Part shown: positions 40,817 to 62,592 of the stretch, one piece after another | Position numbering within the stretch: the stretch's first letter is position 1 | Layout: every line of letters starts with the position of its first letter | Origin: Deltaproteobacteria bacterium | GTDB lineage: Bacteria > Desulfobacterota > Desulfomonilia > UBA1062 | Reading direction: 5' to 3' | Assembly: GCA_018434685.1 (NCBI GenBank) | Contig: JAHDOV010000023.1 | Location: 1-64,000, forward strand | DNA: 64,000 bases | Notes under the pieces: model-generated | What the model was told of the DNA's origin: nothing | What the model saw: only the letters and a program-made list of their open reading frames with translations | The model's database searches: none | Program-made: the position numbers and the translations under genes

Positions 40817-40832
40817 TGGCATACCGCTTGCT
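40817..40832 (+). promoter_or_regulatory. Sigma-54 (-24/-12) promoter
   Basis: TGGCATACCGCTTGCT matches the sigma-54 consensus TGGCACGNNNNTTGCW except at two less conserved bases, and GG-N10-GC spacing is exact. It is 59 bases before the start codon at 40892 and nearly identical to the promoter at 62577. Confidence 0.8.
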
Positions 40833-40891
40833 CTACAGTTATCAATCGATCGTAATACAAATAAAACTAATTAAAAAAAAGGAGAAACAGG

Positions 40892-41302
40892 ATGAAGAGG
40901 TTGACAGACAAGGCTATGGGGATCAAGGTTCTAACGATTTTACTTGCTGCTTGTTTTATTATGCAGGCATCTGCCACAAATGTATTTGCAGCTTACACCG
41001 ATCAGAGTGGTTCTCTGCCGGGGATGGATGACAGTGACAGCACAAATAAGACGTTGCGTACATCCTTGCTGGTTGCTGGTGTTGTTGCCGTAGGGGGGTT
41101 AATTTACTACCTGGTCACAAATTCTGACGCCACAGATACGAACTCACTTGAGACTGACAAAGTATCGTTTTCGAATGATTCTTTTGGTGGGATCAAAGTC
41201 GCCAGTCAAAATCCGCCAAAGAATATATTGAGCACCATCTTTAATAAGTTTAAGCCGGATAAACAGGGATGCTCCGTTCTTGATTTTGCGTATCACTTTT
41301 AG
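40892..41302 (+). CDS. Small exported or membrane protein under a sigma-54 promoter
   Basis: 136 residues. A signal-like N-terminal helix (GIKVLTILLAACFIMQASATNVFA) is followed by a second hydrophobic helix (SLLVAGVVAVGGLIYYLV) and a polar C-terminal part. The family is unknown to me. An AAAAGGAG site precedes the start. The gene is single, is flanked by a strong hairpin at its 3' end, and has a good sigma-54 promoter, which suggests a stress- or signal-induced membrane protein. Confidence 0.7.
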   Translation: MKRLTDKAMGIKVLTILLAACFIMQASATNVFAAYTDQSGSLPGMDDSDSTNKTLRTSLLVAGVVAVGGLIYYLVTNSDATDTNSLETDKVSFSNDSFGGIKVASQNPPKNILSTIFNKFKPDKQGCSVLDFAYHF

Positions 41303-41319
41303 CGGAGGAGGTTTTAAAC

Positions 41320-41363
41320 CAGGTTTTCCAGGAGAGGTACAACAATCTTTCCTGGAAAACCTG
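41320..41363. terminator. Long hairpin after the 136-aa gene
   Basis: CAGGTTTTCCAGGA (41320-41333) and TCCTGGAAAACCTG (41350-41363) form a perfect 14-bp stem with a 16-base loop, 17 bases after the stop codon. No U-run follows, so it may act as an mRNA-stabilising structure as well as a terminator. Confidence 0.6.
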
Positions 41364-41475
41364 TAAAAGCGTAATAAAAATAACCAATAAAATGGCAGTT
41401 ATTTCAAGGCAATATGCCTATGACAATACAATCATGGTTAGTCTTTCTTGATGGATTCGCAAAAAGTCAAAAATA

Positions 41476-41560
41476 CTCCCTCTCTTGAAGGGAGACGGTG
41501 TTGGAAAAGGCCAAACTAAACTCCCTCTCCCTTGAAGGGAGAGGGTTGGGGTGAGGGTGA
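41476..41560. repeat. Two copies of a palindromic CTCCCTCTCCC-type intergenic repeat
   Basis: A shorter copy (CTCCCTCT CTTGAA GGGAGA, 41476-41495) and a fuller copy (41521-41560) with CCCTCTCCC/GGGAGAGGG arms followed by TTGGGGTGAGGGTGA. Repeats with this sequence occur in intergenic DNA of many Gram-negative bacteria; I recall the pattern but cannot name a family. It is probably a non-autonomous mobile or REP-like element. Confidence 0.6.
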
Positions 41561-41634
41561 ATACATCATTATTTCTTACACCTCAAACCTGCTCTCCACT
41601 TCATCCCCTGTCCGGTCCCTGTTCCTGAACGCTC

Positions 41635-41955
41635 CTATCTGGATGGTAAAGTCTGGTCAGACTGTTCAGGGGAGTTCTTCATAAGAAAATCATAGAAGAA
41701 GTACCCATAACCACTTGCGGAAGCACTTTTCGTCTCTATAGGCTCAGGCTCAGTCACGTTCTCTCGTTCGTGTGAAAAAGCACCCTTAAAACCAGCATGA
41801 ACATTGTCAAAGGAGTGACCGGAACGATTATTGAGAGTTGCTACCAGTGAAACAGATGCCCCCAGAAGGAGCAGGGAAAGAAGAAGCAGTGCAATATTCT
41901 TCCAGAGAGGAGGCTGCTTTTTGTAATTTCTCTTTTTCTTCATGTACCCGCCCAT
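41635..41955 (-). CDS. Small single-helix membrane protein
   Basis: 106 residues from ATG 41955. Basic N-terminus (KKKRNYKKQ), one hydrophobic helix (IALLLLSLLLLGASVSLVA), then a soluble tail. It has no recognised domain. An ATG at 41943 is an alternative start; the frame can be extended to 42018 without support. It lies just after the DUF4062-STAND gene on the same strand with 84 bases between, so it might be co-transcribed with it. Confidence 0.55.
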   Translation of the reverse strand: MGGYMKKKRNYKKQPPLWKNIALLLLSLLLLGASVSLVATLNNRSGHSFDNVHAGFKGAFSHERENVTEPEPIETKSASASGYGYFFYDFLMKNSPEQSDQTLPSR

Positions 41956-42039: not shown

Positions 42040-45000
42040 TTACCCTTGTTTTTCAAGGGCGTCATTCACAAGACCCCAGAGCTGACCAAGCTGGCCATGG
42101 GTTATTCCGTTTTGTACAAGGGGCGCCAGAACGCTTTTCGCCTTGGTCAGCCAGGCGATCTCTTCTTCTTTCCTGCACACACGGTACATGTTCCAGTGGC
42201 TGATGGCATAGTCCACACGGAAATCTACGCGGTCAGGCTCTTTGGTGCAGAGTTCTTCCATAATCTGTATTGACTTTTCAAAATATGAGATAGCTTTATT
42301 GGTACCGCCTGTGGATTCGTAACTTTTCCCCAAGTTATTGAGGCTAACAGAGAGATCTCGGCGGAAATCGGTACGGTCGGGCTCTTTGGTACAAAGTCTT
42401 TCCATCATCAAGAAATACTGATTAAAATACAAGATTGCCTTGTCATTATTGCCCAAAGATTTATAGATATTGCCTAAATAATCAATTGAAACACCGTAAT
42501 AATAATAGAAATCTGTTCGATCGGGCTCTTTTCCACAGAGCTCATCCATAATCTGTAAGGATTTTTCAAAATACAAGATTGCCTTGTCATTATCATTCAT
42601 TGTTTCAAATATCTTACCCAAGTTATTGTAAGTTACGGCATGATAATAGCTAAAATCGGTACGGTTAGGGTCTTTATTACAAAGATCTTCTATAATCCTG
42701 AAGGATTCTTCAAAATATGGGAGTGCTTTGCTGGAATCACTCCTGATATTATAGAAATAATACCCTATATTACTCAAACTGATGAAAAGATCGCGGGAGA
42801 ATTCTATACGATCAGGTTTGTTTAAGCAGAGTTCTCTTCTGAGTTTGAGAGATTTTTCAAAATACAAGATTGCTTTGTCGCCATCGCCAATGGACTGGAA
42901 GATGTATCCTATATTATTGAAGTTGACTGTAATATCTCTAATAAAGTCGGTATCGTCAGGCTCTTTGGCACATAGCATTTCAATGGTCTGTAGTTCTTTT
43001 TTAAAATACAAAAGTGCCTTGCTGCTGTCCCCCATTGCTTGATAGATTCTTGCAACGTTACTGAAGCTGGCGGAGAGATCTCGGCGGAAATCGGTACGGT
43101 CGGGCTCTTTGTTACAAAGTTCTTCCATGATCTGTAAATCTTCTTCGTAATACAGAAGGGCTTTGTTGCTATCCCCTATAGTTTGATATATTTTGCCAAT
43201 GCTACCTATGCAGACTGCGAGTTCGCGACGGAGATCGAGACGTTCGGGCTCTTTAGCTTGGAGCTTTTTAAGACTATCCATTATTGTAGTGAAAAAAAAT
43301 AAAGACCAAAGAGTGTTGCCGGTCTTTTCAAATAGAGTTCCCTTTAAAAAAAAGAAGGTTGATAATTTTAATGAGAAAATTTTCTTTACGAGCTTCAAAA
43401 GAATCTGTTTCAAGAGTGATTCATCTGTATAAGGTTTACTGTAAGCGACCCATTCAAATAATGTACCTGCTATGACTTTATAAACAGCAAAGAGCGGATC
43501 AGTAAGGGAAAAAATATCTTGTAAGAATTTATACAAGCATTTCCCATCTCCTATTTGATAAAGATATATGCCTGTAAAGAGAATAGTGTTAGTTATATCT
43601 CCAGATTTAGAATTGAATTTTGTTAGCCCGTATCCGGCCAGCATCTGATAGTAACTCTTCCGGGCCTGTTCATCCTTCAGGTAGCGGTCCTTCACCGCAT
43701 CCAGCAGCTGCTGATGGAAGAAGCCGATGAGCCCTTCCCGGTTTTCTCCGGCATTGTGCAGATATGCAGCCGCCGCCCTTCCCAGCCTTGCCCAGATGTT
43801 CGACGGCAGCCTGTCTTCGCCTTCGCGCTTTAAGAGTTCGAGCAGCTCGCTTTCCAGGAGGCCGTACCGGGAGGAGGCAATGAGGGAGAAGGCATCTCTC
43901 ACCAGCTGCCTGCCGTGGTCCTCCTCGAGGCGGGCAAGAACCTGGGCAAAAAGCCCGGGTATGGTGCCTGGCATCTGGTCGATACGGTCCGTGATCTCTT
44001 CGAACCGGGGATACACCCGCAGCTCCTCGCAGGCCACGGTCAGATACAGGGGCTTGTCTGCGTCGGCCTTGCCCAGGAGCAACTCCATCTGGTCCCTGCC
44101 CCGCTTTCTGTCGTGGCCGAGGCCTTTGCGGAAAACCTCCAGGCGGTCTTTGACAAGAGCACGGCTGTTGTCTGAGGGCAGGCTCTGCATCCAAGTGACA
44201 GGGATGCCTGCCCTGACGGCTGCATCCACGGTCTGTCCGGGCAGGGTGCTGACCACCATCCTGACGTTTTCCGGCAGACGCTTAGGCAGCCAGTTCAGGG
44301 TATGGGCATGGAACGTAGGCATCATCTGGTTCAGGGCATCGATGAAGATGACCACCCTGCCCTGGCGGGCAGCGGTATTAAGCGTCAGGCGGAAGGCCTC
44401 GCTGATCTTGTCCATGTTGACCAGTTCTGTTGCATCGAACGGTATATCGAAGCGCCGGGACACGGTCTCGATGATGTTGAGCAGCAGTCTGTCCACCTCA
44501 TGGGACATGGGGCTTGCCCCCACGAACCTGGTGACCAGGCAATCATCGGGATGATTTTTCCGCCACGTGCGTGCTGCCACGGCCATGACCGCGGACTTGC
44601 CGCTGCCGGCCTCGCCCGCTAGCACGAAAGGCATGTGCCTTCCGGCATCGTTCAGATAATCCGCAATGCTTCCCAGGGTGTCTTCCCGGCCGATGAAGAT
44701 GCGGGAGCGCTGTTCCATGAACCTCAGGTGATGCGTGTCTTCTATGACCAGCGGGTCGGTCTCTGCTTCTGACTCAGGATACTCATCCTCTATGGCCTGC
44801 CAGAGATCTTCCAGCACTGCTTCCCCGAATGTTTCCAGTCCCTCCAGATAAACATCGCTGTACCGGTTGATGACTTTGCACTGTTTTTCATTCAGGCGTG
44901 CATGCTCATCGTTGTCGAGGAGGTTGTCCTCCCCGACGATCTCCCTGAGCAGGGCCATGTCCTGTTCCGACAGGCCATCACCCAGCTCTGCCTTGGCCTC

Positions 45001-45600
45001 GAGCCAGTTGACACGCAGGCCCCTGTACGTGCAGGGATAGCTCTCCTCAATATGCCCGTAAAGGCTGTCATTGCTGAACGCCTCGCGGATGTCATCCTTC
45101 AGTTTTGAGAGCCTGCCTGAGGCATCCGGGTTTTCCGCATTGGCATCCGGCCGCTTGTTCTCAGGAACCTTAGAGATAAATGCCGGATCCCTAAAATAGA
45201 AAAATGCCCGTGGTTTCATGGCATGGTTCTTCAGCACGCCGTGGTAGATCTCAAGGGCTGTGACGGAATGCCCATCTTCGAACTCCTTCAGCCAGTCGTA
45301 GCGTGCCATATCAGGCACGTCATATGTGTCAGGCACCCACCCGTACCGCTCGCCCAGGATGCCGATGAAGAACGGGCGGCAGTTCTCGATCTCGTCCAGA
45401 CAGATCTCCAGGACTTTGCCGCTCTCGGCCTGCTCCTCGGTCACGCCCCAGCGCAGGTCCACATCCACAAGGTGCAGCCCCTTCTTCAGGCAGCGTTCCT
45501 TCAATTCCGGAAACACGTATCGCACAAGGTAGTCGCGTTCCGAGTGCATGTCCCTGAACGTAGACGATATGAATATGCGGATGGTTCGTTCCTGTTTCAT
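42040..45600 (-). CDS. DUF4062-STAND NTPase-TPR protein
   Basis: 1,186 residues. Residues 7-130 are a DUF4062 domain (IRIFISSTFRDMHSERDYLV; LHLVDVDLRWGVT). A NACHT/STAND NTPase follows, with P-loop GEAGSGKS (329-336), the segment FVGASPMSHEVDRLLLNI and Walker B VVIFIDALNQM. From about 770 to the end are TPR units with a repeated TDFRRDLSVSLNN register. The domain order resembles the eukaryotic nephrocystin-3/NWD group. STAND proteins are usually sensors that oligomerise after ligand binding; a defence role is inferred from domains and neighbours. A sigma-54-like promoter lies upstream. Near-identical 48-bp DNA repeats inside the TPR part indicate recent duplication. Confidence 0.88.
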   Translation of the reverse strand: MKQERTIRIFISSTFRDMHSERDYLVRYVFPELKERCLKKGLHLVDVDLRWGVTEEQAESGKVLEICLDEIENCRPFFIGILGERYGWVPDTYDVPDMARYDWLKEFEDGHSVTALEIYHGVLKNHAMKPRAFFYFRDPAFISKVPENKRPDANAENPDASGRLSKLKDDIREAFSNDSLYGHIEESYPCTYRGLRVNWLEAKAELGDGLSEQDMALLREIVGEDNLLDNDEHARLNEKQCKVINRYSDVYLEGLETFGEAVLEDLWQAIEDEYPESEAETDPLVIEDTHHLRFMEQRSRIFIGREDTLGSIADYLNDAGRHMPFVLAGEAGSGKSAVMAVAARTWRKNHPDDCLVTRFVGASPMSHEVDRLLLNIIETVSRRFDIPFDATELVNMDKISEAFRLTLNTAARQGRVVIFIDALNQMMPTFHAHTLNWLPKRLPENVRMVVSTLPGQTVDAAVRAGIPVTWMQSLPSDNSRALVKDRLEVFRKGLGHDRKRGRDQMELLLGKADADKPLYLTVACEELRVYPRFEEITDRIDQMPGTIPGLFAQVLARLEEDHGRQLVRDAFSLIASSRYGLLESELLELLKREGEDRLPSNIWARLGRAAAAYLHNAGENREGLIGFFHQQLLDAVKDRYLKDEQARKSYYQMLAGYGLTKFNSKSGDITNTILFTGIYLYQIGDGKCLYKFLQDIFSLTDPLFAVYKVIAGTLFEWVAYSKPYTDESLLKQILLKLVKKIFSLKLSTFFFLKGTLFEKTGNTLWSLFFFTTIMDSLKKLQAKEPERLDLRRELAVCIGSIGKIYQTIGDSNKALLYYEEDLQIMEELCNKEPDRTDFRRDLSASFSNVARIYQAMGDSSKALLYFKKELQTIEMLCAKEPDDTDFIRDITVNFNNIGYIFQSIGDGDKAILYFEKSLKLRRELCLNKPDRIEFSRDLFISLSNIGYYFYNIRSDSSKALPYFEESFRIIEDLCNKDPNRTDFSYYHAVTYNNLGKIFETMNDNDKAILYFEKSLQIMDELCGKEPDRTDFYYYYGVSIDYLGNIYKSLGNNDKAILYFNQYFLMMERLCTKEPDRTDFRRDLSVSLNNLGKSYESTGGTNKAISYFEKSIQIMEELCTKEPDRVDFRVDYAISHWNMYRVCRKEEEIAWLTKAKSVLAPLVQNGITHGQLGQLWGLVNDALEKQG
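42350..43120 (-). repeat. Near-identical DNA repeats in the TPR-coding part
   Basis: Bases 42350-42397 and 43073-43120 are identical over the first 39 bases and differ at one of 48, at an offset of 723 bases (241 codons). A second pair, 26 identical bases beginning at 42424 and 42568, lies 144 bases apart. Protein-level repeats would not need such DNA identity, so recombination or recent duplication has occurred. Confidence 0.7.
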
Positions 45601-45684: not shown

Positions 45685-45700
45685 TGCAGAATATGTGCCT
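45685..45700 (-). promoter_or_regulatory. Sigma-54-like promoter of the DUF4062-STAND gene
   Basis: On the minus strand, AGGCACATATTCTGCA keeps GGCAC at -24 and TGCA at -12 with the correct ten-base spacing; two consensus bases differ. It is about 85 bases before the start codon at 45600. It is the weakest of the five candidates but has a clear CTCAAC pair upstream. Confidence 0.6.
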
Positions 45701-45807: not shown

Positions 45808-45835
45808 GTTGAGTTTATGATATATTTGTTGAGTT
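45808..45835 (-). promoter_or_regulatory. Candidate enhancer-binding sites for the promoter at 45685
   Basis: On the minus strand AACTCAAC occurs at 45828-45835 and again at 45808-45815, exactly 20 bases apart, each preceded by TAA or ATA. They lie 108-135 bases upstream of the -24 element. Confidence 0.6.
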
Positions 45836-52100: not shown

Positions 52101-52110
52101 TCACCTTCTC

Positions 52111-52269
52111 CTATTTTGTCAGCTCCACACCTCTCGACGGGCACTGCTTGCGAAGCTTGGGAAAAACCTGCTTCACCAGGTGGTTACGTTCAACCATCAT
52201 GTCCCGAGATGTTGATGATACGAAGATACTGATCTCGCGGTTTTTGTCCTGAGCGATCAGGTCTATCAA
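52111..52269 (-). pseudogene. Truncated DUF4062 domain (52 codons)
   Basis: TTG 52269 to TAG 52111-52113 encodes EISIFVSSTSRDMMVERNHL and then VKQVFPKLRKQCPSRGVELTK, which aligns with residues 7-43 of the DUF4062-STAND protein at 42040 but stops where LVDVDLRWGVT would begin. AGGAGG lies seven bases before TTG, and the next gene starts 11 bases after the stop with its own site. It looks like the start of a lost DUF4062 gene kept as an operon leader, or a tiny expressed DUF4062 protein. Confidence 0.7.
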
Positions 52270-52433
52270 GAGATTTCCTCCTCAATGTTAAATATTCAAA
52301 GCAAAATAGAATCGCCAGTCTTCAGCGAATATTCTTGATGTATATCAAGCAGAAAACAGAATATTTATATCATAACCAGGCTCAATGAAAAAGCTCGATG
52401 TATCAACATGTAGATTGTTATCCGACCGGTTGA
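52270..52433. other. Short intergenic spacer
   Basis: The bases between the SLOG gene and the DUF4062 remnant hold a small perfect hairpin, CTTGAT/ATCAAG (52334-52349), and no coding frame. No sigma-54 site with correct spacing is present; a GC..GCC near-match at 52304 has a spacing two bases too long. Confidence 0.4.
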
Positions 52434-54131
52434 TTACACAACATTCTCCAGCTCTGCAAAGCTCATCAGCCGCACCCAGTCCTGCGACTCTGTGAGCATC
52501 AGGCTCTTGGCAGCCAGCAGCATGGATTCGAGCTCTTCATGGGTTTTCACACTTTGATACTGATCATTCAATGTGCTTAAATGATCTGCCATGACCGAGC
52601 TGCGTGAGGCAATGCGCGAGAACTCCATGAGCAGGCGGTAGCCGTTCATGGCGGCAGCAGCGGCAGGCAGCGTGACAGCAATAACAGATATGACCTTCTC
52701 AGCCATATGAACCCAATGCCCAAATAACTGGCCATATATATTCGTCATAGAGATCGCCAGGTGTGCGCAGGTAACTGCAATGGCCAGACCAAACAGCCAT
52801 AGGCCCAACTGTTTGAAGATATGGTTATTTCTCTGGTTAGTTTTTGCTTTGTCCCGGTGGTAATTAAGCTGGTCTACTATCCAGCATGTCTTGATATACT
52901 CTCCATAAGCATCAGCATCTTGCCCTGCAGGCCGCTTGAAAGCCGGTATTGCATAAAGAATCTCATCAAGGGTTTTATTTGCCCAGGTTTCGCTCTCAGC
53001 CGAATACAGACCAACCGGCAGATTGGATGAATGGCTTGGATTCATTCCACATGCAGCCAAGTAGAATGCTGTCCGTATTCCCTCTGTCAGGGCGCGGCAC
53101 CTCAGCCAGTTTTTGTGTACGTGAGCACGGTGAGCACGCAAGATCATTACAAGCAGGCTGATAAGGGAAACCAGCTCACAAAAATATGCCAAAAGAGAGA
53201 TGATGCGATTATCATGAAAGACCACTGCCACAGCCATGAAGAACACTGCCGCAGTGGAGAGGATATATGCGTTCCGGCCCGTATGCTGATATGTTTCTTG
53301 GTTCGCTTTGGCGATGATGGAGGCACGGACATAATATGGAAGAAGATAATCGGATACCACCTGTTTCAATTCCTTGGGGATCGGCTCACCACAGTCTTTG
53401 CCAAATAGCTTGTCGTATTGATTGAGAGAATACGATTGAAATTCCTCATCGCGTATCGGCCAGGCATTGAATGCATCGAGTTTGTCAAGATGACGGGCAT
53501 TGAGTGCACCCCCATTTTCCAATTTAAGATCGTGCTGTTCTTTCGTCGAAATGATGAAAACCGGTTTTCCCTCCTTGATTGCCAGGGATACGATCTCCGC
53601 TGTCCCTCCCCCGCCACGTGCAGGTTTGCCATCCCACAGGGCTATCAGTATGTCGCTGTGCTCAACTACATACTCCCCTATCCTGCGATATCCGCTTCGA
53701 CGAGCATCAACAGTATCTGCCCCCTGTGTGGCATTGGCAACTTTCATGTCCAGTTCGATACAGCGGTGGGACTTTTTGAGTAATGTTGTGAACTCATCTT
53801 TTGATTTAGGAGTGACAAAGTCATCCAGATAGTCTTCCCTTTTGAAAGGAAGTGCAGCGATGAGACGAGTATTGGTTTGCTCAAGCACTATCCGGGCGAC
53901 GAGCCTGTCAGCGCCTTCAGCTAAGGGAGAGATGATAGTGAAAGACACAGGTGTGGCCTGTAATTCTTGTATATTCTTTCGAGATTCTGCATTAAATGCC
54001 TCAAGATACCTGGTTTCCACTATTTCCCTAATTTGCTGTTCAAGATTCTGCTCATCAGTTAAGCTGCGATGGCCGGTTACGCCAATGCGTATACGGAAAG
54101 ACACAATTGATTTCGGTTGTTCTTTATTCAT
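52434..54131 (-). CDS. SLOG-domain protein with C-terminal membrane segments
   Basis: 565 residues. The N-terminal 200 residues are a Rossmann-like SLOG domain: GVTGHR (17-22), SPLAEGAD (68-75) and ALWDGKPARGGGG (164-176) form the nucleotide-binding signature. Residues 285-565 carry two pairs of hydrophobic helices (STAAVFFMAVAVVF, SLISLLVMIL, LFGLAIAVTCAHLAI, SVIAVTLPAAAAAMNG) separated by conserved soluble stretches, like SLATT-type effectors. The likely action is that a nucleotide ligand bound by SLOG opens or assembles a membrane pore. It has a sigma-54 promoter (54251-54266). It leads an apparent minus-strand operon with the RyR/TrkA and TIR-STAND genes, though the 164-base spacer leaves room for a further promoter. 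Confidence 0.85.
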   Translation of the reverse strand: MNKEQPKSIVSFRIRIGVTGHRSLTDEQNLEQQIREIVETRYLEAFNAESRKNIQELQATPVSFTIISPLAEGADRLVARIVLEQTNTRLIAALPFKREDYLDDFVTPKSKDEFTTLLKKSHRCIELDMKVANATQGADTVDARRSGYRRIGEYVVEHSDILIALWDGKPARGGGGTAEIVSLAIKEGKPVFIISTKEQHDLKLENGGALNARHLDKLDAFNAWPIRDEEFQSYSLNQYDKLFGKDCGEPIPKELKQVVSDYLLPYYVRASIIAKANQETYQHTGRNAYILSTAAVFFMAVAVVFHDNRIISLLAYFCELVSLISLLVMILRAHRAHVHKNWLRCRALTEGIRTAFYLAACGMNPSHSSNLPVGLYSAESETWANKTLDEILYAIPAFKRPAGQDADAYGEYIKTCWIVDQLNYHRDKAKTNQRNNHIFKQLGLWLFGLAIAVTCAHLAISMTNIYGQLFGHWVHMAEKVISVIAVTLPAAAAAMNGYRLLMEFSRIASRSSVMADHLSTLNDQYQSVKTHEELESMLLAAKSLMLTESQDWVRLMSFAELENVV

Positions 54132-54250
54132 GTTTATACTTTTATTACAGAAAATTTCCTTCGAGGTAAATCATTGGTTTTTTGTTGCTTCGCCCTGGAT
54201 TGATTTTCTTGGATTGTTTTCTTTTGGAGGTTATGGATTTTATATTAAAC

Positions 54251-54266
54251 AGCAATGGAGATGCCA
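54251..54266 (-). promoter_or_regulatory. Sigma-54 promoter of the SLOG operon
   Basis: On the minus strand, TGGCATCTCCATTGCT has perfect GG and GC elements with ten-base spacing and matches all but two consensus positions. It is about 120 bases before the SLOG start codon. Unlike the other four candidates no CTCAAC pair is seen within the 250-bp divergent region; a single GTCAAAC at 54318 might be a weak site. Confidence 0.75.
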
Positions 54267-54381
54267 CATGTACTATGTTGTTTTTCTTTTAATGTTTATT
54301 GCGATATGATAGTGTGTCAAACTGCAAGCATAATATATTGATACATGTAATCAGCACCAATTTTCATAGAGGAGGATTCTC

Positions 54382-57165
54382 ATGTCACAGAAAATCGTCA
54401 TCTATGGCGACCTGATTCAGGACATCAACCTTCTGGAGCAACCCCTACCCCCGGCGTTCCATTTCCAGACCCTTCCCCATACAGTTCAGAAGACCACCGA
54501 TGGGGGTGTTGCATACATGAAAAAGCTGCTGGAAGGAACGTTGACAGGCTGCACAATTACTGCCCCCCAAGTCGATCAAGGACAATGGGAAAAGAACGCA
54601 GTAAGGGTTTTTCAGACCTGGAAACAGTTTCCTGCATCGGCAAAAAGCAGGAATAAGGTGTGGCGCATCTCCAAACTCATGGGTCGATCATCTTGTACAG
54701 AGATTCCCAAAGTCATTAAATCGATTAAAAAAGCCCCTCAGGCAGATCTCATGTTGATAGACAGTATGGGGATGGGCTTCTTAGGAAAAGAATTGATGTG
54801 GGAAGACCCGAAGGCAACTCACCTGAAAGAGTCTGAAAAATGGGAGCCGTTTGAGTCTCTGGTGAGAAAGGTGAACCCAAAAGATATAATTTTCAAGCTC
54901 TCTTCTTTTCGTGAAGGCCTTCCACTGCCCTGCACCTCTGAATTATTGAAAAAGACCACGGTAATTCTTTCGGTCAAGGCACTCCGGGAACGGGGGGCTG
55001 ACATTTCAGAAGGGCTGTCCTGGGACAAGACCATCGAGGACACAGTCAGGGAATTCAGCAATGGACTCTCCAGTCATGACCTGGCTCTGTGCAAGCGCGT
55101 GGTGGTGCTCTTCTCCACCGAGGGGGCTGCAGTCTTCGAGCCTGAAAAAGAACCCGGCAAAGAAGAAATCAAGTATTTGAAAAAATTCATCTACCATCCC
55201 TGCCAATACGAAGGGACTTTCAAGACACAGCACCCCGGTCATTTCTTCGGCGACATCTCAATACTCACCGCTGCCATCATACGTCATATCATGGATCCGA
55301 AAGGATTCCCCCTGTTTGCAGCTCTTTGTCTTGGTCTGTCGGCCATGCGCACTGTTCACGAAAAAGGGATTACAGAAGACAAAACAGGCCAATTTGATAT
55401 CAACATGCCTGCAAAGACAGCCTGTGACCTCCTTTCACTTCCGTACACTCTGAAAGAATTAGAGAATACAAAAGGGGCTACGAAAAAGAAAGAAAAGGAA
55501 AGAAAAGAACAAATAGAAAGCATAAAAAAACAGCTCAATGACTGCCTCAATAAGTTTGCCTGCTCGTTCCAGCACGACCTGCTCCACGATGGTGAGTTGA
55601 AAAAACAGCATGAGGGAGAATCCAATCTCCTGCGAGATACCACCGGTTTTGGCTATGAATACGTGGCTGCCAAGGCATCTGAGATCGTCATAAAGGGTGC
55701 GCGAAAGGCATTGAATCATGTCCCCATTGTCTCATATGGCAATTTCCTGACCGCTGACCGGCAAGAGATCGAACGGATCAATTCCATAAGAAAACTGATC
55801 ACTACCTACTGTGCAGCACCTGGTGACAACAAGCCCCTCTCCATCGCAGTCTTCGGACCTCCGGGCGCAGGCAAGTCCTTTGCCATTAAACAGCTGGCCA
55901 ACGAGCTCGGCTTCGAGAAGAAACTGATCCATGAGTTCAACCTCTCCCAGTTCTGCAGAGATACTATGCAGGAACTCCATACCGCATTCCACCAGGTCCG
56001 TGATGCCTCCATGAAGGGTAAAATCCCACTCATCTTCTGGGATGAGTTCGACACCGACAAATACCAGTGGCTCAAGGAGTTCCTTGCGCCCATGCAGGAT
56101 GCCGAATTCAGGGTCGGCAGTGTCACTCATCCCTTCAACAAGGCGATCTTCATCTTTGCAGGAGGAGTAACCAAAACGTTTCAGGAACTCGATGCGCGAA
56201 AGGATGATGAGTATAACAAGGGACAAAAAGTTCCCGATTTCATAAGTCGTCTCAGGGGGTATGTAAACATCAAGGGACCAAATAAACCCGGAAGTGACGA
56301 CCAAGAAAAGGAATCTGTAAATGAAACAGACCCCAATCAGGTAAAGGAACCTGTAAAGGAAACAGACTCCAACCATGAGTATCTCATTCGCCGGGCTATA
56401 CTGTTCCGCTCAATCCTGGAGCGTTTCTGCAGTCATCTGATCGGGGATGACGGCACTGCTGCAGTGAGCGGTCCGCTGGTACAGGCATTCCTGCGGGTTA
56501 AGAAGTACAAGCACGGTGCGCGGTCCATGGAATCGCTCATCACCATGAGCAGCCTTGGAGGTGTCAGTTTCTTTGGTGAATCTTCACTGCCGTCGGATGA
56601 CCTTATGAACCTTCATGTGGATGTGAAAAACTTCCGCACACATCTACAGGCAAACACTCTGGAACAGCCCATAATAGAACTGATCGCCGCAGCATATCAC
56701 GAGGCATGGTGCCAAGAGAAAAAGGATCAAGGCTACGAGCTGGGTGAGGTTCGATGTGACGATGAAACCAAGAAGAAAACCCACCCGCTGCTGAAAGCTT
56801 ATACCGAGCTCAGCGAAAAGGATAAAGAGGCTAACAGGATAACCGCGCGGCTCACCCAGCCAAAGCTCAACAATGTCGGGTTAAAGCTGGCATGGAAATG
56901 CGGTGTGGATAAAACCGACATCGACCTTAACGAATATAAGGAAACGCTCAGCAATATCGAGCACGATATCTGGCTGAGAGAGCATCTTCTGAGCGGCTAC
57001 GAGGATGCAGACAACACAGAAGATATACTCCGCCTTCACAGGAATATGAGGCAGTTCAAAGAACTGAGCGATGAAGATAAAAAGCTCGACAGTGTCATCA
57101 TAGAAGCATTGGAAGAGGTTTTAGAAGACAAGCAGTACACGTTGGGGCCTGCCGAGAAAGAATAG
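54382..57165 (+). CDS. PfkB-like / AAA+ ATPase / RyR-like fusion protein
   Basis: 927 residues. The N-terminal 330 residues resemble the ribokinase (PfkB) fold: IVIYGDLIQDINL at the start and GHFFGDISILTAA near 286-298, although the catalytic GAGD is altered. A charged helical linker (KKKEKERKEQIESIKK) leads to an AAA+ domain with P-loop GPPGAGKS (492-499) and Walker B LIFWDEFDTD. The C-terminus has two RyR-like units, HEAWCQEKKDQGYEL and EHDIWLREHLLSGYED. GAGGAGG precedes the start. It is divergent from the SLOG gene; both strands of this island thus use RyR-type domains. The enzymatic role is unknown; a ligand-dependent chaperone or remodeller is plausible. Confidence 0.82.
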   Translation: MSQKIVIYGDLIQDINLLEQPLPPAFHFQTLPHTVQKTTDGGVAYMKKLLEGTLTGCTITAPQVDQGQWEKNAVRVFQTWKQFPASAKSRNKVWRISKLMGRSSCTEIPKVIKSIKKAPQADLMLIDSMGMGFLGKELMWEDPKATHLKESEKWEPFESLVRKVNPKDIIFKLSSFREGLPLPCTSELLKKTTVILSVKALRERGADISEGLSWDKTIEDTVREFSNGLSSHDLALCKRVVVLFSTEGAAVFEPEKEPGKEEIKYLKKFIYHPCQYEGTFKTQHPGHFFGDISILTAAIIRHIMDPKGFPLFAALCLGLSAMRTVHEKGITEDKTGQFDINMPAKTACDLLSLPYTLKELENTKGATKKKEKERKEQIESIKKQLNDCLNKFACSFQHDLLHDGELKKQHEGESNLLRDTTGFGYEYVAAKASEIVIKGARKALNHVPIVSYGNFLTADRQEIERINSIRKLITTYCAAPGDNKPLSIAVFGPPGAGKSFAIKQLANELGFEKKLIHEFNLSQFCRDTMQELHTAFHQVRDASMKGKIPLIFWDEFDTDKYQWLKEFLAPMQDAEFRVGSVTHPFNKAIFIFAGGVTKTFQELDARKDDEYNKGQKVPDFISRLRGYVNIKGPNKPGSDDQEKESVNETDPNQVKEPVKETDSNHEYLIRRAILFRSILERFCSHLIGDDGTAAVSGPLVQAFLRVKKYKHGARSMESLITMSSLGGVSFFGESSLPSDDLMNLHVDVKNFRTHLQANTLEQPIIELIAAAYHEAWCQEKKDQGYELGEVRCDDETKKKTHPLLKAYTELSEKDKEANRITARLTQPKLNNVGLKLAWKCGVDKTDIDLNEYKETLSNIEHDIWLREHLLSGYEDADNTEDILRLHRNMRQFKELSDEDKKLDSVIIEALEEVLEDKQYTLGPAEKE

Positions 57166-57303
57166 GCAACTTAGGGATCTGAATCTTGAGATACAGCCTG
57201 AAGAAGACAGGGTGCTAGATATACGAAGAGAGATGTTCTGTATCAAACTAAAATATTGTTGTGTACATTAAAACCGTGATGAAATGTATTATGAGGGTTC
57301 GCG

Positions 57304-57711
57304 ATGCCAAAACGTGTGTTCATAAGTTTTAAGGCTGAGGATAAGAAAAAAGTTGATGGTCTCCGTCTGCTTGCAAAGAATCCCAACTATGAACTCGAGT
57401 TTTATGATGAATCAATACGTGCTGCTATTGACAGCCGAAATGCAGTGTATATTAAAAGCATTATTCGGGAGAAAATCGAGAGAAGTGGGGTAGTTTTGTG
57501 CCTGGTAAATACTGATATGCACACAAGTTCCTGGGTGAATTGGGAATTGGAGACCGCTATAAAGCTGGATAAACCAATTGTAGCTATGGCAGTAAAGGAT
57601 GTGCAGGAGGCAATATTGCCAACACCAATTCGAGGGAAAGTACATTTCTACTCATGGAACCCTGCATCACTTGGTAGCTACCTGGTGAATGCCGGAATTA
57701 TAGGATCATAA
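57304..57711 (+). CDS. TIR-like protein, ThsB/DUF1863 family
   Basis: 135 residues, a complete single-domain TIR-like protein. KRVFISFKAEDKKKVDGL, YDESI, IKSIIREKIERSGVVLCLV and SSWVNWELETAIKLDKPIV fit the DUF1863 family that includes the Thoeris sensor ThsB; the glutamate in WELE is in the catalytic position. ThsB enzymes make a cyclic ADP-ribose isomer that activates the SLOG-containing ThsA. No ThsA (SIR2-SLOG) is in the window; the closest SLOG protein is at 52434. GAGGG precedes ATG 57304. Confidence 0.88.
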   Translation: MPKRVFISFKAEDKKKVDGLRLLAKNPNYELEFYDESIRAAIDSRNAVYIKSIIREKIERSGVVLCLVNTDMHTSSWVNWELETAIKLDKPIVAMAVKDVQEAILPTPIRGKVHFYSWNPASLGSYLVNAGIIGS

Positions 57712-57901: not shown

Positions 57902-57966
57902 AACTCAACATGTTATCCATCAAAACTCAACCTATCTCAGCCAAGTTCACAGCAAATATTGTCAAC
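57902..57966 (+). promoter_or_regulatory. Candidate enhancer-binding sites for the promoter at 57995
   Basis: AACTCAAC at 57902-57909 and at 57924-57931 are 22 bases apart, and GTCAAC follows at 57961-57966. They lie 30-93 bases upstream of the -24 element, a usual distance for a sigma-54 activator. Confidence 0.6.
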
Positions 57967-57994
57967 TAGATTGATTTACAGGGTAATTTATCAC

Positions 57995-58010
57995 TGGCAC
58001 AGTCGTTGCT
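57995..58010 (+). promoter_or_regulatory. Sigma-54 promoter of the MoxR cassette
   Basis: TGGCACAGTCGTTGCT differs from the sigma-54 consensus at one position only and has the exact GG-N10-GC spacing. It is 41-56 bases before the MoxR start codon. This is the strongest of the five candidates. Confidence 0.87.
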
Positions 58011-58050: not shown

Positions 58051-59004
58051 ATGGGACAAATGAAATGCCCTGAGAAAACAACAACCATGAAAAGAGCCGG
58101 TTCGGGAGGAGGCAAGGCTATGGAGGTTAACAGAATCAGCATCAACGGCAAGACAGTCCAGCTCGGCCAGCCATACCGGGCGCAAACCTCGGAACTTGTG
58201 GGCAGGGACAGGGAGATGAAGAAGATCCTGGCCGCATGGATGGGCAGTGCGGGCGACATAACTCTCTCGCCTCTCCTGGTGGGAGGCCCGGGCATGGGCA
58301 AGAACCGCCTGGTCTACGAATGCGCCCGTGTCTGTGCAAAGGAGCTTTACATATTCCAGGGGCACGAAGACGTCTCTGCCGAAGACCTCATATGTGCGGT
58401 ACGGTTCAGCGACGACCGTGAAAGGCAGATGGACTATATTATGTCACCCATTGTCACGGCCATGATCAGGGGCGGCATATGCTTCATCGACGAGATAGCC
58501 AAGATAAGGCCACGGGCCCTTGCCCCTCTGGCAAGCCTGCTTGACGAACGCCGCTACATCGATTCAATCATCCTCGGTGAGCGTATCTATGCGCACCCTG
58601 GCTTCCGCCTGGTCGGGGCCACCAACACCATCGATTTGCAGCAGAACCAGCTCCCTGACTTCATCCAGTCGAGGATGCGGCCTGTTATAACCGTTGAGTT
58701 TCCCGGACGTGCAGAGATAGACGCCATCGTCACCTCCCGTTTCCACAGCCTCAACTCCAGGAGCCGTCCTCTGCTCGATAAGTACTGGAATCTCTGGGCG
58801 GAGCGTTATGGAGACCATCCGCCCACCCCGCGCGACAGCATCTACATCTTCGGCTATGCCCACAAGCTTGCCGATTTCGAATCCGCCGGCAGTGACAGGC
58901 CGCTTGTGCTGGATGGATCGGTCAAGGCAGCTCCCATAACAGAGGCCCACATCGCCCGTGCCATGGAGGCGTTCTTTAAGCCAACCGACAAGAGGAGCGC
59001 CTGA
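58051..59004 (+). CDS. MoxR-type AAA+ ATPase
   Basis: 317 residues. After a 45-residue lead, VGRDREMKKIL starts the AAA+ core; the Walker A is GGPGMGKN (78-85), where asparagine replaces the usual Ser/Thr after lysine. Walker B GGICFIDEIAKI, sensor 1 GATNTIDLQQ and the arginine-finger region FIQSRMRPVI are MoxR-like. MoxR proteins are chaperone-like ATPases that usually act with a partner protein. It is the first gene of a cassette with the 766-aa and TPR genes. GGGAGG precedes ATG 58051; ATG 58120 is an alternative start. Confidence 0.86.
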   Translation: MGQMKCPEKTTTMKRAGSGGGKAMEVNRISINGKTVQLGQPYRAQTSELVGRDREMKKILAAWMGSAGDITLSPLLVGGPGMGKNRLVYECARVCAKELYIFQGHEDVSAEDLICAVRFSDDRERQMDYIMSPIVTAMIRGGICFIDEIAKIRPRALAPLASLLDERRYIDSIILGERIYAHPGFRLVGATNTIDLQQNQLPDFIQSRMRPVITVEFPGRAEIDAIVTSRFHSLNSRSRPLLDKYWNLWAERYGDHPPTPRDSIYIFGYAHKLADFESAGSDRPLVLDGSVKAAPITEAHIARAMEAFFKPTDKRSA

Positions 59005-59005
59005 C

Positions 59006-61306
59006 ATGAGAGAGAGTTTGATCATCCATAAACTGGACGATGCCGAGCTCTTCGTGGTGCCTGCAATCCACTATCACCAGTTCTTTGCTCACGAAGTCCA
59101 TCGCATCTGCGCTGATCCGGACACGCGGCCGGAGGCTGTTGCCGTGGAGCTCGGCCCCCAGATTGCCCAAGAGGCCGGGGACTGGCTCCGAAAGCTGTGC
59201 AGAAAAAAACACAAATACGGTATGCTTCCGGTCATGCTGGGGATCACAAAAATAAACGATCTGATCCGGCCATCACTGAGGGAAAAGGCCATAAGCCTTC
59301 AGCAGGAAAACCGCATGGACCTCAGTGAACTCCCTTCCGATCTTTTGAAACAGGAGCTGGACTTTGCAAGCCACTCCATGCTCCTGCTTTCACCCACAGA
59401 CAGCATCATCGAGGCACTCAGGTGCGGGGTGGAACTCGCCCTCCCCGTTTTCGGCGTGGATCTGGACGACATAGCCGGATATGACCATGAGACTGTACAC
59501 ATGGAGGTTCCCTTCCCGGAGCAGGACCTGTCGGTCTATGTGTCCAGAAATGCACCTCATGTCAGCCGTTACCGTTTCGATGAGATCGACCTTCGCAGGG
59601 AGATCGCCATGGCCGCCCGTCTTAAAGCGCTCCTAAAGAAGTATCGCAGGGTTCTCTTCACCTGCGGCATCGGGCACTGGCTGAGCATCAGAAAACTCCT
59701 GGACGACCCAGACCTCAGGCCTGCAAGGATTCCCGAGCAGAATGAACTCAAGACAGACAGATTCAGACGTGTGCTGGTCCACCCATCCATAGCCGTACAG
59801 TATATGGACATGTTCCCTGCACTGACCATTGCATATGAAGCATACCGCAGGCCCGCGACCACAGGCGAAAGAGAAATAGAAGACCTGCCGCCATCAGATT
59901 CTTGTGTTTTGTTCTACGAACAGCTTGAAATTGCCTACAGTGAATACCTCAAAAAATCTCGTGACAAGAAATCTGCAAACTTTAAGGAAACTTACCCTGA
60001 GTGTTTCAGGCAGTTTGAGGCATATCTCAACAATATCTGCCTTCTGGATAATGCCCCGGTCCCGGGCATTTTCACTGCGCTTAGGGCTTCAAAGGAGATG
60101 GTGAACGAACCCTTCATGGAAGTTCTGTCAAATACCATGATGGAGTTCCCCTGGGCCTCGCAAGATCAGTTCCCTGACCTGCCGATGGTAAGCCCCCAGG
60201 AGCGCAGTTTCCCGGGGGCAGTGGTGCTTCATGGAGGAACGCTGCCCAGTTCCAGGCGGTTCCATGTACGTTCCTATCATCCGAGCAGCCTGCATACCGA
60301 TTCTCTCGGCAAACTCCCGTATCGCAGGAAAAGCCACGAATCAACTGGCTGGAGTTCCCTCTCATACACCTGGGTGCCCTGGGACCGGCTTGTCACTGCA
60401 CTGTCGCTGCGCGCAACTGCAACAACAGGGCGAATGCGCACGGGCAAAAATGCTGTGGCATTCGAAGGCAGCCTGCTGGGCGGCATCGATGTCAAGAAAA
60501 CCCTTCGTGCATACGCGAGGGGAGAACAATCACTCTATGTCAGGGATACTATCCCTGAAAGATCCGGACAAGCCGGGTTCATGGAAAGATTCCCGGTGGT
60601 GTGGATTCTTGATCAGAATCCTGACGAAAATGCATGGCTCAGCGCACAATTCATCCCCTGCGATCACATAATGCCCCATGTAACGGACAGGCCTCGCCTA
60701 CAGCGCATCATGGATGAGCAGGGCGATAACATCGTTGCAGTCATTGGTTACAAGACGAGAGATACATCCAGCGGTCTGTTTGCCTCCTCTAACAGCATAG
60801 CTACGGACCACCTCTATGGGCTTGCCGTGTTGCAGCCGCTTTGCTGGACCAACAAGCAGCATGCCTGCTGGTTTGAAGCTACGGGCTACAATCGCAATCC
60901 GGTTTGTTCCAACACATCTTTCAACAATTATACAGGCAGCATCTCTCTGCTCTACCAGGAACGATTAGGGTTAAATGTGAGAGAATATCACTGGTCAACC
61001 GTTCTGATCCTTACAGCCCTTCCCTATGCAAGGGGAAATATCACCATCGTTGTTCCCGATGGTTACCAGGTGGAGCAGATCGTGCACCAAAAAGCGCATG
61101 AATACCGTGTACATATTAATACGGTGCCGCTCGATCATTTTTCCCGGACAGAGACCAACCGCATGGCAATCTGCCATTTTGCGCAGGCCATGACCACTGA
61201 ACCAGAGTACACCTTTTCAAAGGAGACAGAGAAGATCATCGGTGAACGACAGACAGAGTATCTTCACCTTGTGCCACATGAAATCCTGGAATTCGGAACC
61301 AGATAA
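59006..61306 (+). CDS. Large protein of unknown function, TraB/EreA-like N-terminus
   Basis: 766 residues. AVAVELGPQIAQE (44-56) and a conserved histidine in CGIGHWLSIRK near residue 215 recall the TraB/PrgY/EreA superfamily, and HKLDDAELFVVPAIHYHQFF begins the domain; this is by eye and weak. The remaining 500 residues are not recognised. No membrane segments are evident. It starts one base after the MoxR stop, with AGAGGA upstream, so it is co-translated with MoxR and is the likely client or effector of that ATPase. Confidence 0.72.
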   Translation: MRESLIIHKLDDAELFVVPAIHYHQFFAHEVHRICADPDTRPEAVAVELGPQIAQEAGDWLRKLCRKKHKYGMLPVMLGITKINDLIRPSLREKAISLQQENRMDLSELPSDLLKQELDFASHSMLLLSPTDSIIEALRCGVELALPVFGVDLDDIAGYDHETVHMEVPFPEQDLSVYVSRNAPHVSRYRFDEIDLRREIAMAARLKALLKKYRRVLFTCGIGHWLSIRKLLDDPDLRPARIPEQNELKTDRFRRVLVHPSIAVQYMDMFPALTIAYEAYRRPATTGEREIEDLPPSDSCVLFYEQLEIAYSEYLKKSRDKKSANFKETYPECFRQFEAYLNNICLLDNAPVPGIFTALRASKEMVNEPFMEVLSNTMMEFPWASQDQFPDLPMVSPQERSFPGAVVLHGGTLPSSRRFHVRSYHPSSLHTDSLGKLPYRRKSHESTGWSSLSYTWVPWDRLVTALSLRATATTGRMRTGKNAVAFEGSLLGGIDVKKTLRAYARGEQSLYVRDTIPERSGQAGFMERFPVVWILDQNPDENAWLSAQFIPCDHIMPHVTDRPRLQRIMDEQGDNIVAVIGYKTRDTSSGLFASSNSIATDHLYGLAVLQPLCWTNKQHACWFEATGYNRNPVCSNTSFNNYTGSISLLYQERLGLNVREYHWSTVLILTALPYARGNITIVVPDGYQVEQIVHQKAHEYRVHINTVPLDHFSRTETNRMAICHFAQAMTTEPEYTFSKETEKIIGERQTEYLHLVPHEILEFGTR

Positions 61307-61323
61307 AAGAGAGAGGTGAACAA

Positions 61324-62310
61324 ATGGGACAGCCACGGGAGATAAAATACCAAAGGATAAAAAAACCGAACCGTGAATATGGTGATGATGGCAGTATATT
61401 GTACATCTATGTCGATGATGAGCCCCTGGAGCATATACTCTACGGCAATGGATCACACACCCAAGATCCGGTGAATCTCTACCTGCCCTTATACAAGCAT
61501 GTGCGCGCCATTGAGGAGGCTTGCGAAAAGGGAGACATGGAAGCTGTCATTACTGCCTCCAAGCCCTTCTTAAGTGGCACCCTTCACCTTTCTTCAAATA
61601 TATGCCGCTGGCTGGCAGAAGCATTATCACGGGTCTTCCCTGATATGCCAAACCCGGTGATAAGCTTCGACTACACTGCTTTCCGGCCCCTGCTGGAAAA
61701 CATGTGGTCGGTTGCCTGTGAAGACAGGAACGAGAACCTGCAGATCAAGACAGCTCCACTTCTTACCAGATGGTATGAATACCATGGCCATTACCGGCGA
61801 TCACTTAGAATACATATGGAAATTCTGTATCTTCACCACATGAACCAGGATACTCGTATGGAAGCATCCACGATCAATAATATAGGCTTTGTCTATCTTC
61901 TGGAAAAATGCTGGAAGGAGGCCATGCACTATTTCGACGAAGCTGCAAAACGCTACCATGACCTCGGTATAATAATCAACCACGCCAACTCCCGCTGCAA
62001 CTGGTGGCACTGCAGGTTTGAACTTGGTGGCTGGGGTGAATACGAAAGTACGAAAAATGAGCTGGGTGATTACGCAGAAATCTTGAAAAATTCTCAGAAA
62101 TGGCATGCAAGAAAACCGCATATTCTCCTGGCCCGTCTTGAAGAATTTTGCGGTAACCTGGAAGAAGCGATCAGTCATGTAAAGATTGCCATACAGCACA
62201 CAACCGGCAGCGGGACCAGATACACTGAAGAAGATGGTAAGTATCTTATCGAATTACTGGAGAAACACCATATGGCTGATTACTCTCCAGCAGATCTGCC
62301 TCTCCTGTAA
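61324..62310 (+). CDS. TPR-type helical protein of the MoxR cassette
   Basis: 328 residues. Tandem helical repeats of the TPR kind include STINNIGFVYLLEKCWKEAM, HYFDEAAKRYHDLG and HILLARLEEFCGNLEEAISH. GAGGTGA precedes the start, 14 bases after the previous gene. It probably mediates binding between the MoxR ATPase, the 766-aa protein and a target. The three genes form a stable trio under a sigma-54 promoter. Confidence 0.75.
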   Translation: MGQPREIKYQRIKKPNREYGDDGSILYIYVDDEPLEHILYGNGSHTQDPVNLYLPLYKHVRAIEEACEKGDMEAVITASKPFLSGTLHLSSNICRWLAEALSRVFPDMPNPVISFDYTAFRPLLENMWSVACEDRNENLQIKTAPLLTRWYEYHGHYRRSLRIHMEILYLHHMNQDTRMEASTINNIGFVYLLEKCWKEAMHYFDEAAKRYHDLGIIINHANSRCNWWHCRFELGGWGEYESTKNELGDYAEILKNSQKWHARKPHILLARLEEFCGNLEEAISHVKIAIQHTTGSGTRYTEEDGKYLIELLEKHHMADYSPADLPLL

Positions 62311-62426
62311 CCCCCTGCTTTGATAATCTCGACGTCGTCCGAGAACACGCCATTCTTTTTCAATGACCCTTGGACGATTGCCCAGAAAGGTATGCCGGTG
62401 TCCTGCAGGAGTATTTTGCTGGTTAA
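62280..62426 (-). pseudogene. Possible C-terminal gene remnant
   Basis: The minus strand reads 48 residues between stop codons, including KILLQDTGIPFWAIVQGSLK and NGVFSDDVEIIKAGGY, which look protein-like, but no start is present. It overlaps the end of the TPR gene. Competing frames exist, so this is tentative. Confidence 0.3.
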
Positions 62427-62464
62427 TCAGAATCCATCTTTGATTTTGCTTTTTTTTCATGGCA

Positions 62465-62499
62465 GTTGAGATCGCGTATAAATGAATACATAACTCAAC
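62465..62499 (+). promoter_or_regulatory. Candidate enhancer-binding sites for the promoter at 62577
   Basis: GTTGAG (62465-62470) and CTCAAC (62494-62499) are inverted copies of the same hexamer, 78-112 bases upstream of the -24 element. Unlike the other promoters the pair here is inverted. Another CTCAAC overlaps the -12 element at 62591-62596. Confidence 0.5.
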
Positions 62500-62576
62500 A
62501 ATTATAATCAATTCATGATGGCTTCTATTTCATGATATTGTCGATAACAATTTAATTTAATTTACTATTTATTCTG

Positions 62577-62592
62577 TGGCATACCCCTTGCT
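62577..62592 (+). promoter_or_regulatory. Sigma-54 (-24/-12) promoter
   Basis: TGGCATACCCCTTGCT has exact GG-N10-GC spacing and differs from the promoter at 40817 by only one base. It lies 39 bases before the start codon of the membrane protein at 62631. Confidence 0.8.

What the first reader, a model, noticed from the sequence alone, without database searches (positions are those of the whole stretch)
40817..62592. Five sigma-54 promoters confined to the conflict-gene region
Seen: sequences with exact GG-N10-GC spacing at 40817, 45685 (-), 54251 (-), 57995 and 62577. Each stands 39-120 bases before a gene: a small membrane protein, DUF4062-STAND, SLOG, MoxR cassette and a four-helix membrane protein. 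I noticed none in front of core genes. Established: sigma-54 promoters are silent without an enhancer-binding ATPase. Inference: defence modules of different types are switched on together by one inducing signal instead of being constitutive.
Basis: partly seen in the sequence, partly recalled or inferred. Interest (0 to 1): 0.87.

Follow-up and report, generated by a model that had tools for sequence, protein, structure and literature searches.

The report
Sigma-54 enhancer regulon in defence island
Several unrelated conflict (defence-like) genes packed into one bacterial genome island carry the same strictly activator-dependent kind of promoter plus a shared upstream motif, so they are probably switched on together by one activator that may be encoded in the same island.

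Summary
The five sites are real, but sigma-54 promoters are not confined to conflict genes. The genome has 31 exact TGGCAYN5TTGCW sites (reversed control 4); 26 lie outside the window and the C18 conflict locus, several before amtB, flagellar and PEP-CTERM genes. Clustering is still strong: 4 of 31 in this 21.8 kb (0.16 expected).

New evidence is a shared motif, AACTCAAC, mostly paired, about 96-175 bases upstream of the estimated start at four of the five sites (not 54251) and at a sixth promoter on contig C18. ACTCAAC is at 5 of 6 conflict promoters and 1 of 25 other sites examined. A composite motif-plus-promoter pattern hits the genome six times: these five promoters and one coding frame. 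In 395 phylum genomes this one has 4 strict matches, no other more than 2.

The C18 promoter lies directly behind a sigma-54 activator gene beside a TIR-STAND-WD40 gene. C18 and the window's contig end in the same WD40 array, so the activator is probably in the same island.

Best reading: a small sigma-54 regulon of conflict genes. Weak points: no recognisable DNA-binding domain in the C18 activator, no conservation found, motif chosen after the fact, signal and transcription untested.

The parts
40817..40832 (+). sigma-54 -24/-12 element TGGCATACCGCTTGCT before a 136 aa secreted/membrane protein (40892-41302)
40667..40751 (+). upstream motif cluster, near-copies of AACTCAAC: AAGTCAAC 40667, ATCTCAAC 40688, TACTCAAC 40730, AAGTCAAC 40744
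40892..41302 (+). 136 aa protein with two hydrophobic segments, no Pfam family
45685..45700 (-). weaker sigma-54 element AGGCACATATTCTGCA before DUF4062-STAND
45808..45835 (-). direct pair of AACTCAAC, starts 20 bases apart
42040..45600 (-). DUF4062 - STAND NTPase - TPR protein, 1186 aa
41635..42018 (-). 127 aa protein with one hydrophobic segment, possibly same operon
54251..54266 (-). sigma-54 element TGGCATCTCCATTGCT before the SLOG-SLATT gene; no AACTCAAC motif
52434..54131 (-).
57995..58010 (+). sigma-54 element TGGCACAGTCGTTGCT before the MoxR cassette
57902..57931 (+). direct pair of AACTCAAC, starts 22 bases apart
58051..59004 (+).
58958..61306 (+). partner of the ATPase, no Pfam family; distant relatives in 45 of 394 other phylum genomes
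61324..62310 (+). TPR-like protein, third gene of the cassette
62577..62592 (+). sigma-54 element TGGCATACCCCTTGCT before a multi-TM protein
62465..62499 (+). inverted pair: GTTGAGAT 62465-62472 and AACTCAAC 62492-62499
62631..63398 (+). 255 aa protein with several hydrophobic segments, no family

Best explanation
The region carries a small sigma-54 regulon of conflict genes. Shown by sequence: six sigma-54-like promoters lie at conflict genes (five in the window, one on contig C18; five exact, 45685 weaker). Five of the six carry AACTCAAC or close copies about 96-175 bases upstream of the estimated start, where enhancers of sigma-54 activators usually lie (recalled). The C18 copy sits between an activator gene with an intact GAFTGA loop and the operon it precedes. 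Inferred: the promoters stay closed until an activator assembles at AACTCAAC and remodels the sigma-54 polymerase; the DUF4062-STAND gene, the MoxR cassette, two small membrane proteins and the C18 WD40 operon then rise together on one signal. The C18 activator, with its own undescribed N-terminal domain as sensor, is the most likely switch (about 0.55). The SLOG promoter at 54251 is a possible member without the motif.
For: RpoN is present once, with 31 strong sigma-54 activators, none on the window's contig. ACTCAAC lies within 220 bases upstream of 5 of 6 conflict promoters and 1 of 25 other sites (Fisher 2e-4, motif chosen after the fact). On the transcribed strand within 200 bases, no random six of the other 25 sites share a 7-mer five times (0 of 5000) and Markov copies reach it in 6 of 1000; AACTCAAC with at most one mismatch, both strands: 14 hits in 6 conflict upstreams, 2 in 25 others. 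All 6 intergenic ACTCAAC of the window (by my gene list) lie upstream of one of four sites, on the transcribed strand. Composite pattern in the genome: 6 matches, control 0, five at these promoters. Strict composite in 395 phylum genomes: 4 here, at most 2 elsewhere, 22 matches in the 394 others, control 3. The C18 activator lies directly upstream of the C18 promoter and is divergent from a TIR-STAND-WD40 gene. C12 and C18 share a WD40 array at their ends in compatible orientation.
Against: The C18 activator has no Pfam DNA-binding domain and its C-terminus is unlike the helix-turn-helix ends of the other 30 activators (by eye), so what binds AACTCAAC is open. Its two known relatives have altered GAFTGA loops (GAWPGA, GALAGA) and no STAND or TIR neighbour that I recognise, and the 51% relative's genome (80% complete) has no composite match. 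The motif was found on the promoters it is tested on, and with both strands counted the controls are weaker: 43 of 5000 random sixes and 13 of 500 Markov sets share a 7-mer five times or more. Ten ACTCAAC in the whole window is near chance (6.5 expected); only their placement is notable. The looser composite also matches a same-genus draft 3 times and another genome twice, nearly all inside coding frames. Relatives of the MoxR partner and of the SLOG gene show no sigma-54 promoter in front, and in other genomes strict composite matches precede ordinary genes. 54251 lacks the motif. No transcript data.
Confidence: 0.66

Rival explanations
1. The promoters are real but independent: sigma-54 sites happen to cluster in an AT-rich island of a genome with 31 activators, each conflict gene answers its own activator, and AACTCAAC is coincidence or an unrelated element.
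For: 26 of 31 exact sites are outside the conflict loci; the motif was picked after the fact; chance sets share a 7-mer in five of six in 6 of 1000 (one strand) to 13 of 500 (both strands) cases; 54251 lacks the motif; no conservation.
Against: 5 of 6 against 1 of 25 upstreams; several copies per promoter, mostly same strand, similar distance; 4 strict composite matches in one genome against at most 2 in any of 394 others.
Confidence: 0.2
2. A shared sigma-54 regulon exists, but the activator is another of the 30 helix-turn-helix activators of this genome; the C18 protein is a modulator or acts without DNA binding. (A sub-case of the best explanation, so the odds overlap.)
For: The C18 activator lacks a recognisable DNA-binding domain while the others end in one; its relatives have lost the canonical loop.
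Against: None of the strong activators lies on the window's contig; the C18 gene is directly upstream of a motif-bearing promoter and probably in the same island.
Confidence: 0.3
3. AACTCAAC is the site of a repressor or other regulator of the island and the sigma-54 elements are used otherwise or not at all.
For: Tandem direct repeats 20-22 bases apart are not the palindromes typical of many sigma-54 activators (recalled).
Against: The motif lies far upstream (-96 to -175), an enhancer rather than an operator position; apart from winged-helix domains inside STAND proteins no HTH or WYL regulator appeared among the island proteins scanned, which were most but not all.
Confidence: 0.08

Closest known systems
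[quoted passage not shown] PMC9650030 seen in a listing, PMC9879122 abstract and outline; RtcR-like CARF proteins beside CoCoNuT systems, PMC11090510 passages)
   Same: A sigma-54 activator tied to damage or conflict genes.
   Different: RtcR is described there as CARF-ATPase-HTH and acts on the RNA-repair operon; here five promoters of unrelated conflict genes share a motif, and neither CARF nor HTH was detected in the C18 protein.
Psp response (PspF, sigma-54; also listed for Desulfovibrio vulgaris, PMC4641369 passages)
   Same: Stress- and phage-related genes under a sigma-54 activator.
   Different: Membrane-stress proteins, not STAND, TIR, MoxR or SLOG genes (recalled).
Defence-island regulators BrxR/CapW, CapR, RptR (PMC12255303, passages) and CapK/CapS (PMC13373217, listing)
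   Same: A regulator sets expression of defence genes beside it.
   Different: Described as repressor-based circuits; here control would be positive and strictly activator-dependent.
MoxR-vWA ternary conflict systems (Kaur et al. 2020, PMC7159879, passages)
   Same: MoxR-type ATPase in a conflict cassette.
   Different: No vWA protein detected by Pfam in the cassette; the words sigma, RpoN, promoter and enhancer have 0 occurrences in that paper's main text.

Membership tests
sigma-54 (RpoN) promoter | -24 GG and -12 GC with 10 bases between, consensus TGGCAYN5TTGCW | tested here: met
   4 of 5 exact, 45685 with mismatches
sigma-54 (RpoN) promoter | rpoN and sigma-54 activators in the genome | tested here: met
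   one RpoN, 31 strong PF00158 matches plus 2 weak ones
sigma-54 (RpoN) promoter | upstream activator sites roughly 80-200 bases before the start | tested here: inconclusive
   AACTCAAC or close copies at 4 of 5 window sites and C18, -96 to -175; binding not shown
sigma-54 (RpoN) promoter | rpoN-dependent transcript starting about 12 bases downstream of the -12 element | not testable with these tools
   needs RNA data
bacterial enhancer-binding protein (C18:16017-17771) | sigma-54 interaction AAA+ domain with GAFTGA loop | tested here: met
   PF00158 E 2e-57; GAFTGA, GGTGTGKD and LFLDEI read
bacterial enhancer-binding protein (C18:16017-17771) | C-terminal Fis-type HTH (most members) | tested here: not met
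   no Pfam HTH; end unlike the other 30 (by eye)
RtcR | CARF sensor domain | tested here: not met
   no CARF by Pfam in the first 137 residues at E up to 5; structure not tested
RtcR | adjacent rtcBA | tested here: not met
   neighbours on C18:8906-21061 are TIR-STAND-WD40, a 521 aa protein, WD40, TPR and two proteins without a Pfam family
MoxR-vWA ternary system | vWA partner protein | tested here: not met
   58958-61306 and 61324-62310 give no vWA by Pfam

The most novel reading that the evidence does not exclude
A bacterial conflict island carries its own sigma-54 switch: an activator with an undescribed sensor domain and an undescribed DNA-binding end recognises AACTCAAC and turns on at least five promoters at once (STAND, MoxR cassette, membrane proteins, WD40 operon). 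This would be an enhancer-driven immune regulon that is fully silent until triggered.
Probability: 0.37. Interest if true: 0.8.

Novelty: new variant of a known kind. Interest (0 to 1): 0.6.

Why it matters
How defence and conflict genes that can harm the cell are kept silent and then raised together is poorly known; the island regulators named in the papers I saw are repressors. Sigma-54 promoters cannot fire without an activator's ATP-driven remodelling (established knowledge), so they would be an unusually tight lock. A shared motif and a candidate activator make the idea directly testable with a few reporters.

Tried and rejected
Rejected: 'confined to the conflict region' for sigma-54 sites as such. 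Rejected as a marker: pairs of CTCAAC alone (8 matches against 6 in the control, two of them at promoters). Ten ACTCAAC in the window are not more than chance by number (mean 6.46, 13 of 100 shuffles reach 10).

Considered: conservation of the control in relatives. Among 29 loci of MoxR-partner relatives 5 hold a site scoring 18.5 or more; by position and direction (by eye) none of the five stands in front of the ATPase gene: one lies behind the cassette, two inside genes, and the two exact ones, in one genus, point away. In 15 of the 29 loci an adjacent ATPase-sized frame with at least 150 bases of upstream DNA is present, so only about half can be judged. Five relatives of the SLOG gene have no site above 18.0. 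The 22 strict composite matches in 21 other genomes precede transporters, flagellar, metabolic, secreted or unclear frames, none a conflict gene that I recognise (by eye). The looser composite was run on five genomes only: 6 here, 3 in G001, 1 in G002, 2 in G235, 0 in G022; the matches of G001 and G002 and one of G235 lie inside open frames.

Led nowhere: AlphaFold model of the RA.bin117 relative of the activator, mean pLDDT 46, not used for fold search; HMMs of the activator's N- and C-terminal parts found no relative among island proteins beyond the activator itself; IHF-like sites lie near 6 of 31 promoters, one of them a conflict site (54251). My regular expression for Fis-type HTH caught only 7 of 31 activators although the ends of 23 more read as HTH by eye, so that statement rests on reading. 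PADLOC and NCBIfam added only ThsB-like, TIR, TPR, TrkA and SLATT matches.

Not in print, within limits: paper searches (6 of 6 listed; 20 of 188; 11 of 11; 12 of 28; 12 of 59; 12 of 31; 20 of 687; 12 of 488; 15 of 302) listed no title or abstract start on sigma-54 control of STAND, TIR, MoxR or SLOG islands. I read listings, found passages and one abstract with outline; no whole paper. Searches (PMC12316311; PMC10907252, 0 occurrences of sigma or promoter) added nothing further.

Full report
Observation. The five sites are present as stated, with GG and GC ten bases apart and 38-119 bases to the next start codon. Four are exact matches to TGGCAYN5TTGCW; the site at 45685 is weaker. In the whole genome (4,287,232 bases, 58 contigs) the exact pattern occurs 31 times and its reversed control 4 times, so most matches are probably real sigma-54 promoters.

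The claim of confinement fails genome-wide. Of the 27 exact sites outside the window, one is at another conflict locus (C18). Of the other 26 I looked at 25, by the next open frame and by eye; one (C56:192272) had no locus. Ten of the downstream proteins, checked by Pfam, are an ammonium transporter, acetyl-CoA synthetase, a pyruvate-formate-lyase-like enzyme, a carboxylase, a MotA/ExbB-family protein, a FlgE/F/G-type protein, FlgH and three PEP-CTERM proteins.

The island. By Pfam the region encodes DUF4062-STAND-TPR, TIR-STAND-TPR, a TrkA-N/RyR protein, a protein with a weak SLATT match (its SLOG part by eye), an AAA-RyR protein, a ThsB-like TIR protein and a MoxR-like ATPase with an unclassified partner and a TPR-like protein. 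Beyond the window's end the contig continues with LDcluster4-TIR, TIR-NB-ARC, TIR-NB-ARC-WD40, TIR-STAND, DUF4062 and WD40 genes to its end at 75,730. RyR domains were found in this genome only here (3 matches). A RyR-domain gene (with AAA by Pfam in one case, by eye in the other) stands directly beside a relative of the SLOG gene in two other genomes; in one of them only the N-terminal half of that relative is present and a DUF4062-STAND gene follows. So the region is partly one recurring neighbourhood, not only a collection.

A sixth promoter and an activator. One exact site elsewhere, C18:15771, TGGCATACCCATTGCT, resembles those at 40817 and 62577. It precedes a run of genes on one strand (521 aa protein, WD40, TPR, then a 265 aa and a 626 aa protein without a Pfam family) and lies directly behind a gene for a sigma-54 activator (C18:16017-17771), which is divergent from a TIR-STAND-WD40 gene. 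The activator has a full sigma-54 interaction domain and GAFTGA. None of the 31 strong activators of the genome lies on the window's own contig.

The same island? The TIR-STAND-WD40 gene runs off the right end of C18, and a WD40 gene without its start runs in from the right end of the window's contig C12. Their repeats share exact stretches of 61 and 64 bases; repeats within C18 itself share up to 53. Copies at 84% identity or more were found only at these two contig ends; a 72-75% paralogue lies at C12:67.9-69.2k. Orientation fits one gene broken in assembly. I infer adjacency at about 0.75; it is not shown.

The shared motif. Upstream of C18:15771, 40817, 45685, 57995 and 62577 lies ACTCAAC, at four of them as AACTCAAC, mostly in pairs: direct with starts 20 and 22 bases apart at 45685 and 57995, inverted with a one-mismatch partner at 62577 and C18, and four one-mismatch copies at 40817. 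Distances are -96 to -175 from the estimated start; one further near-copy lies at -44 of 45685. 54251 has none. Five of six conflict promoters have ACTCAAC within 220 bases, against 1 of 25 other exact sites. On the transcribed strand no random six of the 25 others share any 7-mer five times in 5000 draws, and Markov copies of the six do in 6 of 1000. With both strands counted the contrast is weaker: 43 of 5000 random sixes and 13 of 500 Markov sets reach five or more. The window holds ten ACTCAAC, near the 6.5 expected; six are intergenic by my gene list, and all six lie at these promoters on the transcribed strand. A composite pattern (ACTCAAC, 65-125 bases, GGCA-N7-TGC) matches the genome six times with control 0: four in the window, C18, and one inside a 765 aa open frame. 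The same pattern matches three times in a same-genus draft, all in open frames, and once or twice in two others. The strict composite gives 4 matches here and 22 in 394 other genomes of the phylum, never more than 2 per genome, control 3. The motif was discovered on the promoters it is counted on, so these figures bound rather than prove.

Against. The C18 activator has no DNA-binding domain that Pfam knows, and its end differs from the HTH ends of the other 30 activators, by eye. Two relatives of its N-terminus turned up: G022 among 40 relatives and G235 among 394 other phylum genomes; a pattern-seeded search of the named genome collection found two loci that appear to be the same. Both have altered loops, GAWPGA and GALAGA, though an annotated Desulfovibrio activator also has a variant, GAFPGA (PMC4641369). 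I recognise no STAND or TIR gene beside them; a frame that may be an ADP-ribosyltransferase lies about 3 kb from the G022 copy (by eye). No relative of the MoxR partner or the SLOG gene that could be judged carried a sigma-54 site in front. Strict composite matches in other genomes precede ordinary or unclear genes.

Mechanism. From established knowledge, sigma-54 polymerase forms closed complexes that need an activator's ATP hydrolysis. I infer an activator at AACTCAAC that turns on the DUF4062-STAND gene, the MoxR cassette, two membrane proteins and the C18 operon together; the C18 protein is the first candidate (0.55), another activator the second. The signal is unknown. The SLOG promoter may belong or may be separate.

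Place among the known. This works like a sigma-54 regulon and like a regulated defence island; I found no printed case of both for genes of this kind among the rows listed by the searches named in Tried and rejected. The nearest is RtcR, which fails here on its defining CARF domain. I therefore file it as a new variant of a known kind.

Noticed in passing
window 52111-52269 (-): Between the TrkA-RyR and SLOG genes a short frame with a good ribosome site reads as a truncated DUF4062 start (by eye), probably a remnant of another STAND gene.
   Followed up: no
L146:10001-11725 and L147:9887-11716: Relatives of the C18 activator keep the AAA+ domain but have GAWPGA and GALAGA in place of GAFTGA, so they may not act on sigma-54.
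   Followed up: partly
window 50289-57711: RyR-domain proteins stand beside a ThsB-like TIR protein; a 2026 preprint (PMC13232231, abstract start seen in the listing) concerns phage RyR proteins that degrade ADPR immune signals, so these may process such signals.
   Followed up: no
L063:17683 (+), contig C18: A further AACTCAAC lies near the start of the activator gene, about 310 bases before the TIR-STAND-WD40 gene, without a sigma-54 site between.
   Followed up: partly
loci L116-L144: Distant relatives of the MoxR partner (58958-61306) occur in 45 of 394 other phylum genomes, often beside an ATPase-sized frame; the window copy has no Pfam family.
   Followed up: partly
L149 (G001), frame 630-2201 (-): A same-genus genome has a 523 aa frame whose start resembles DUF4062 (by eye), so the genus carries such genes elsewhere too.
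   Followed up: no
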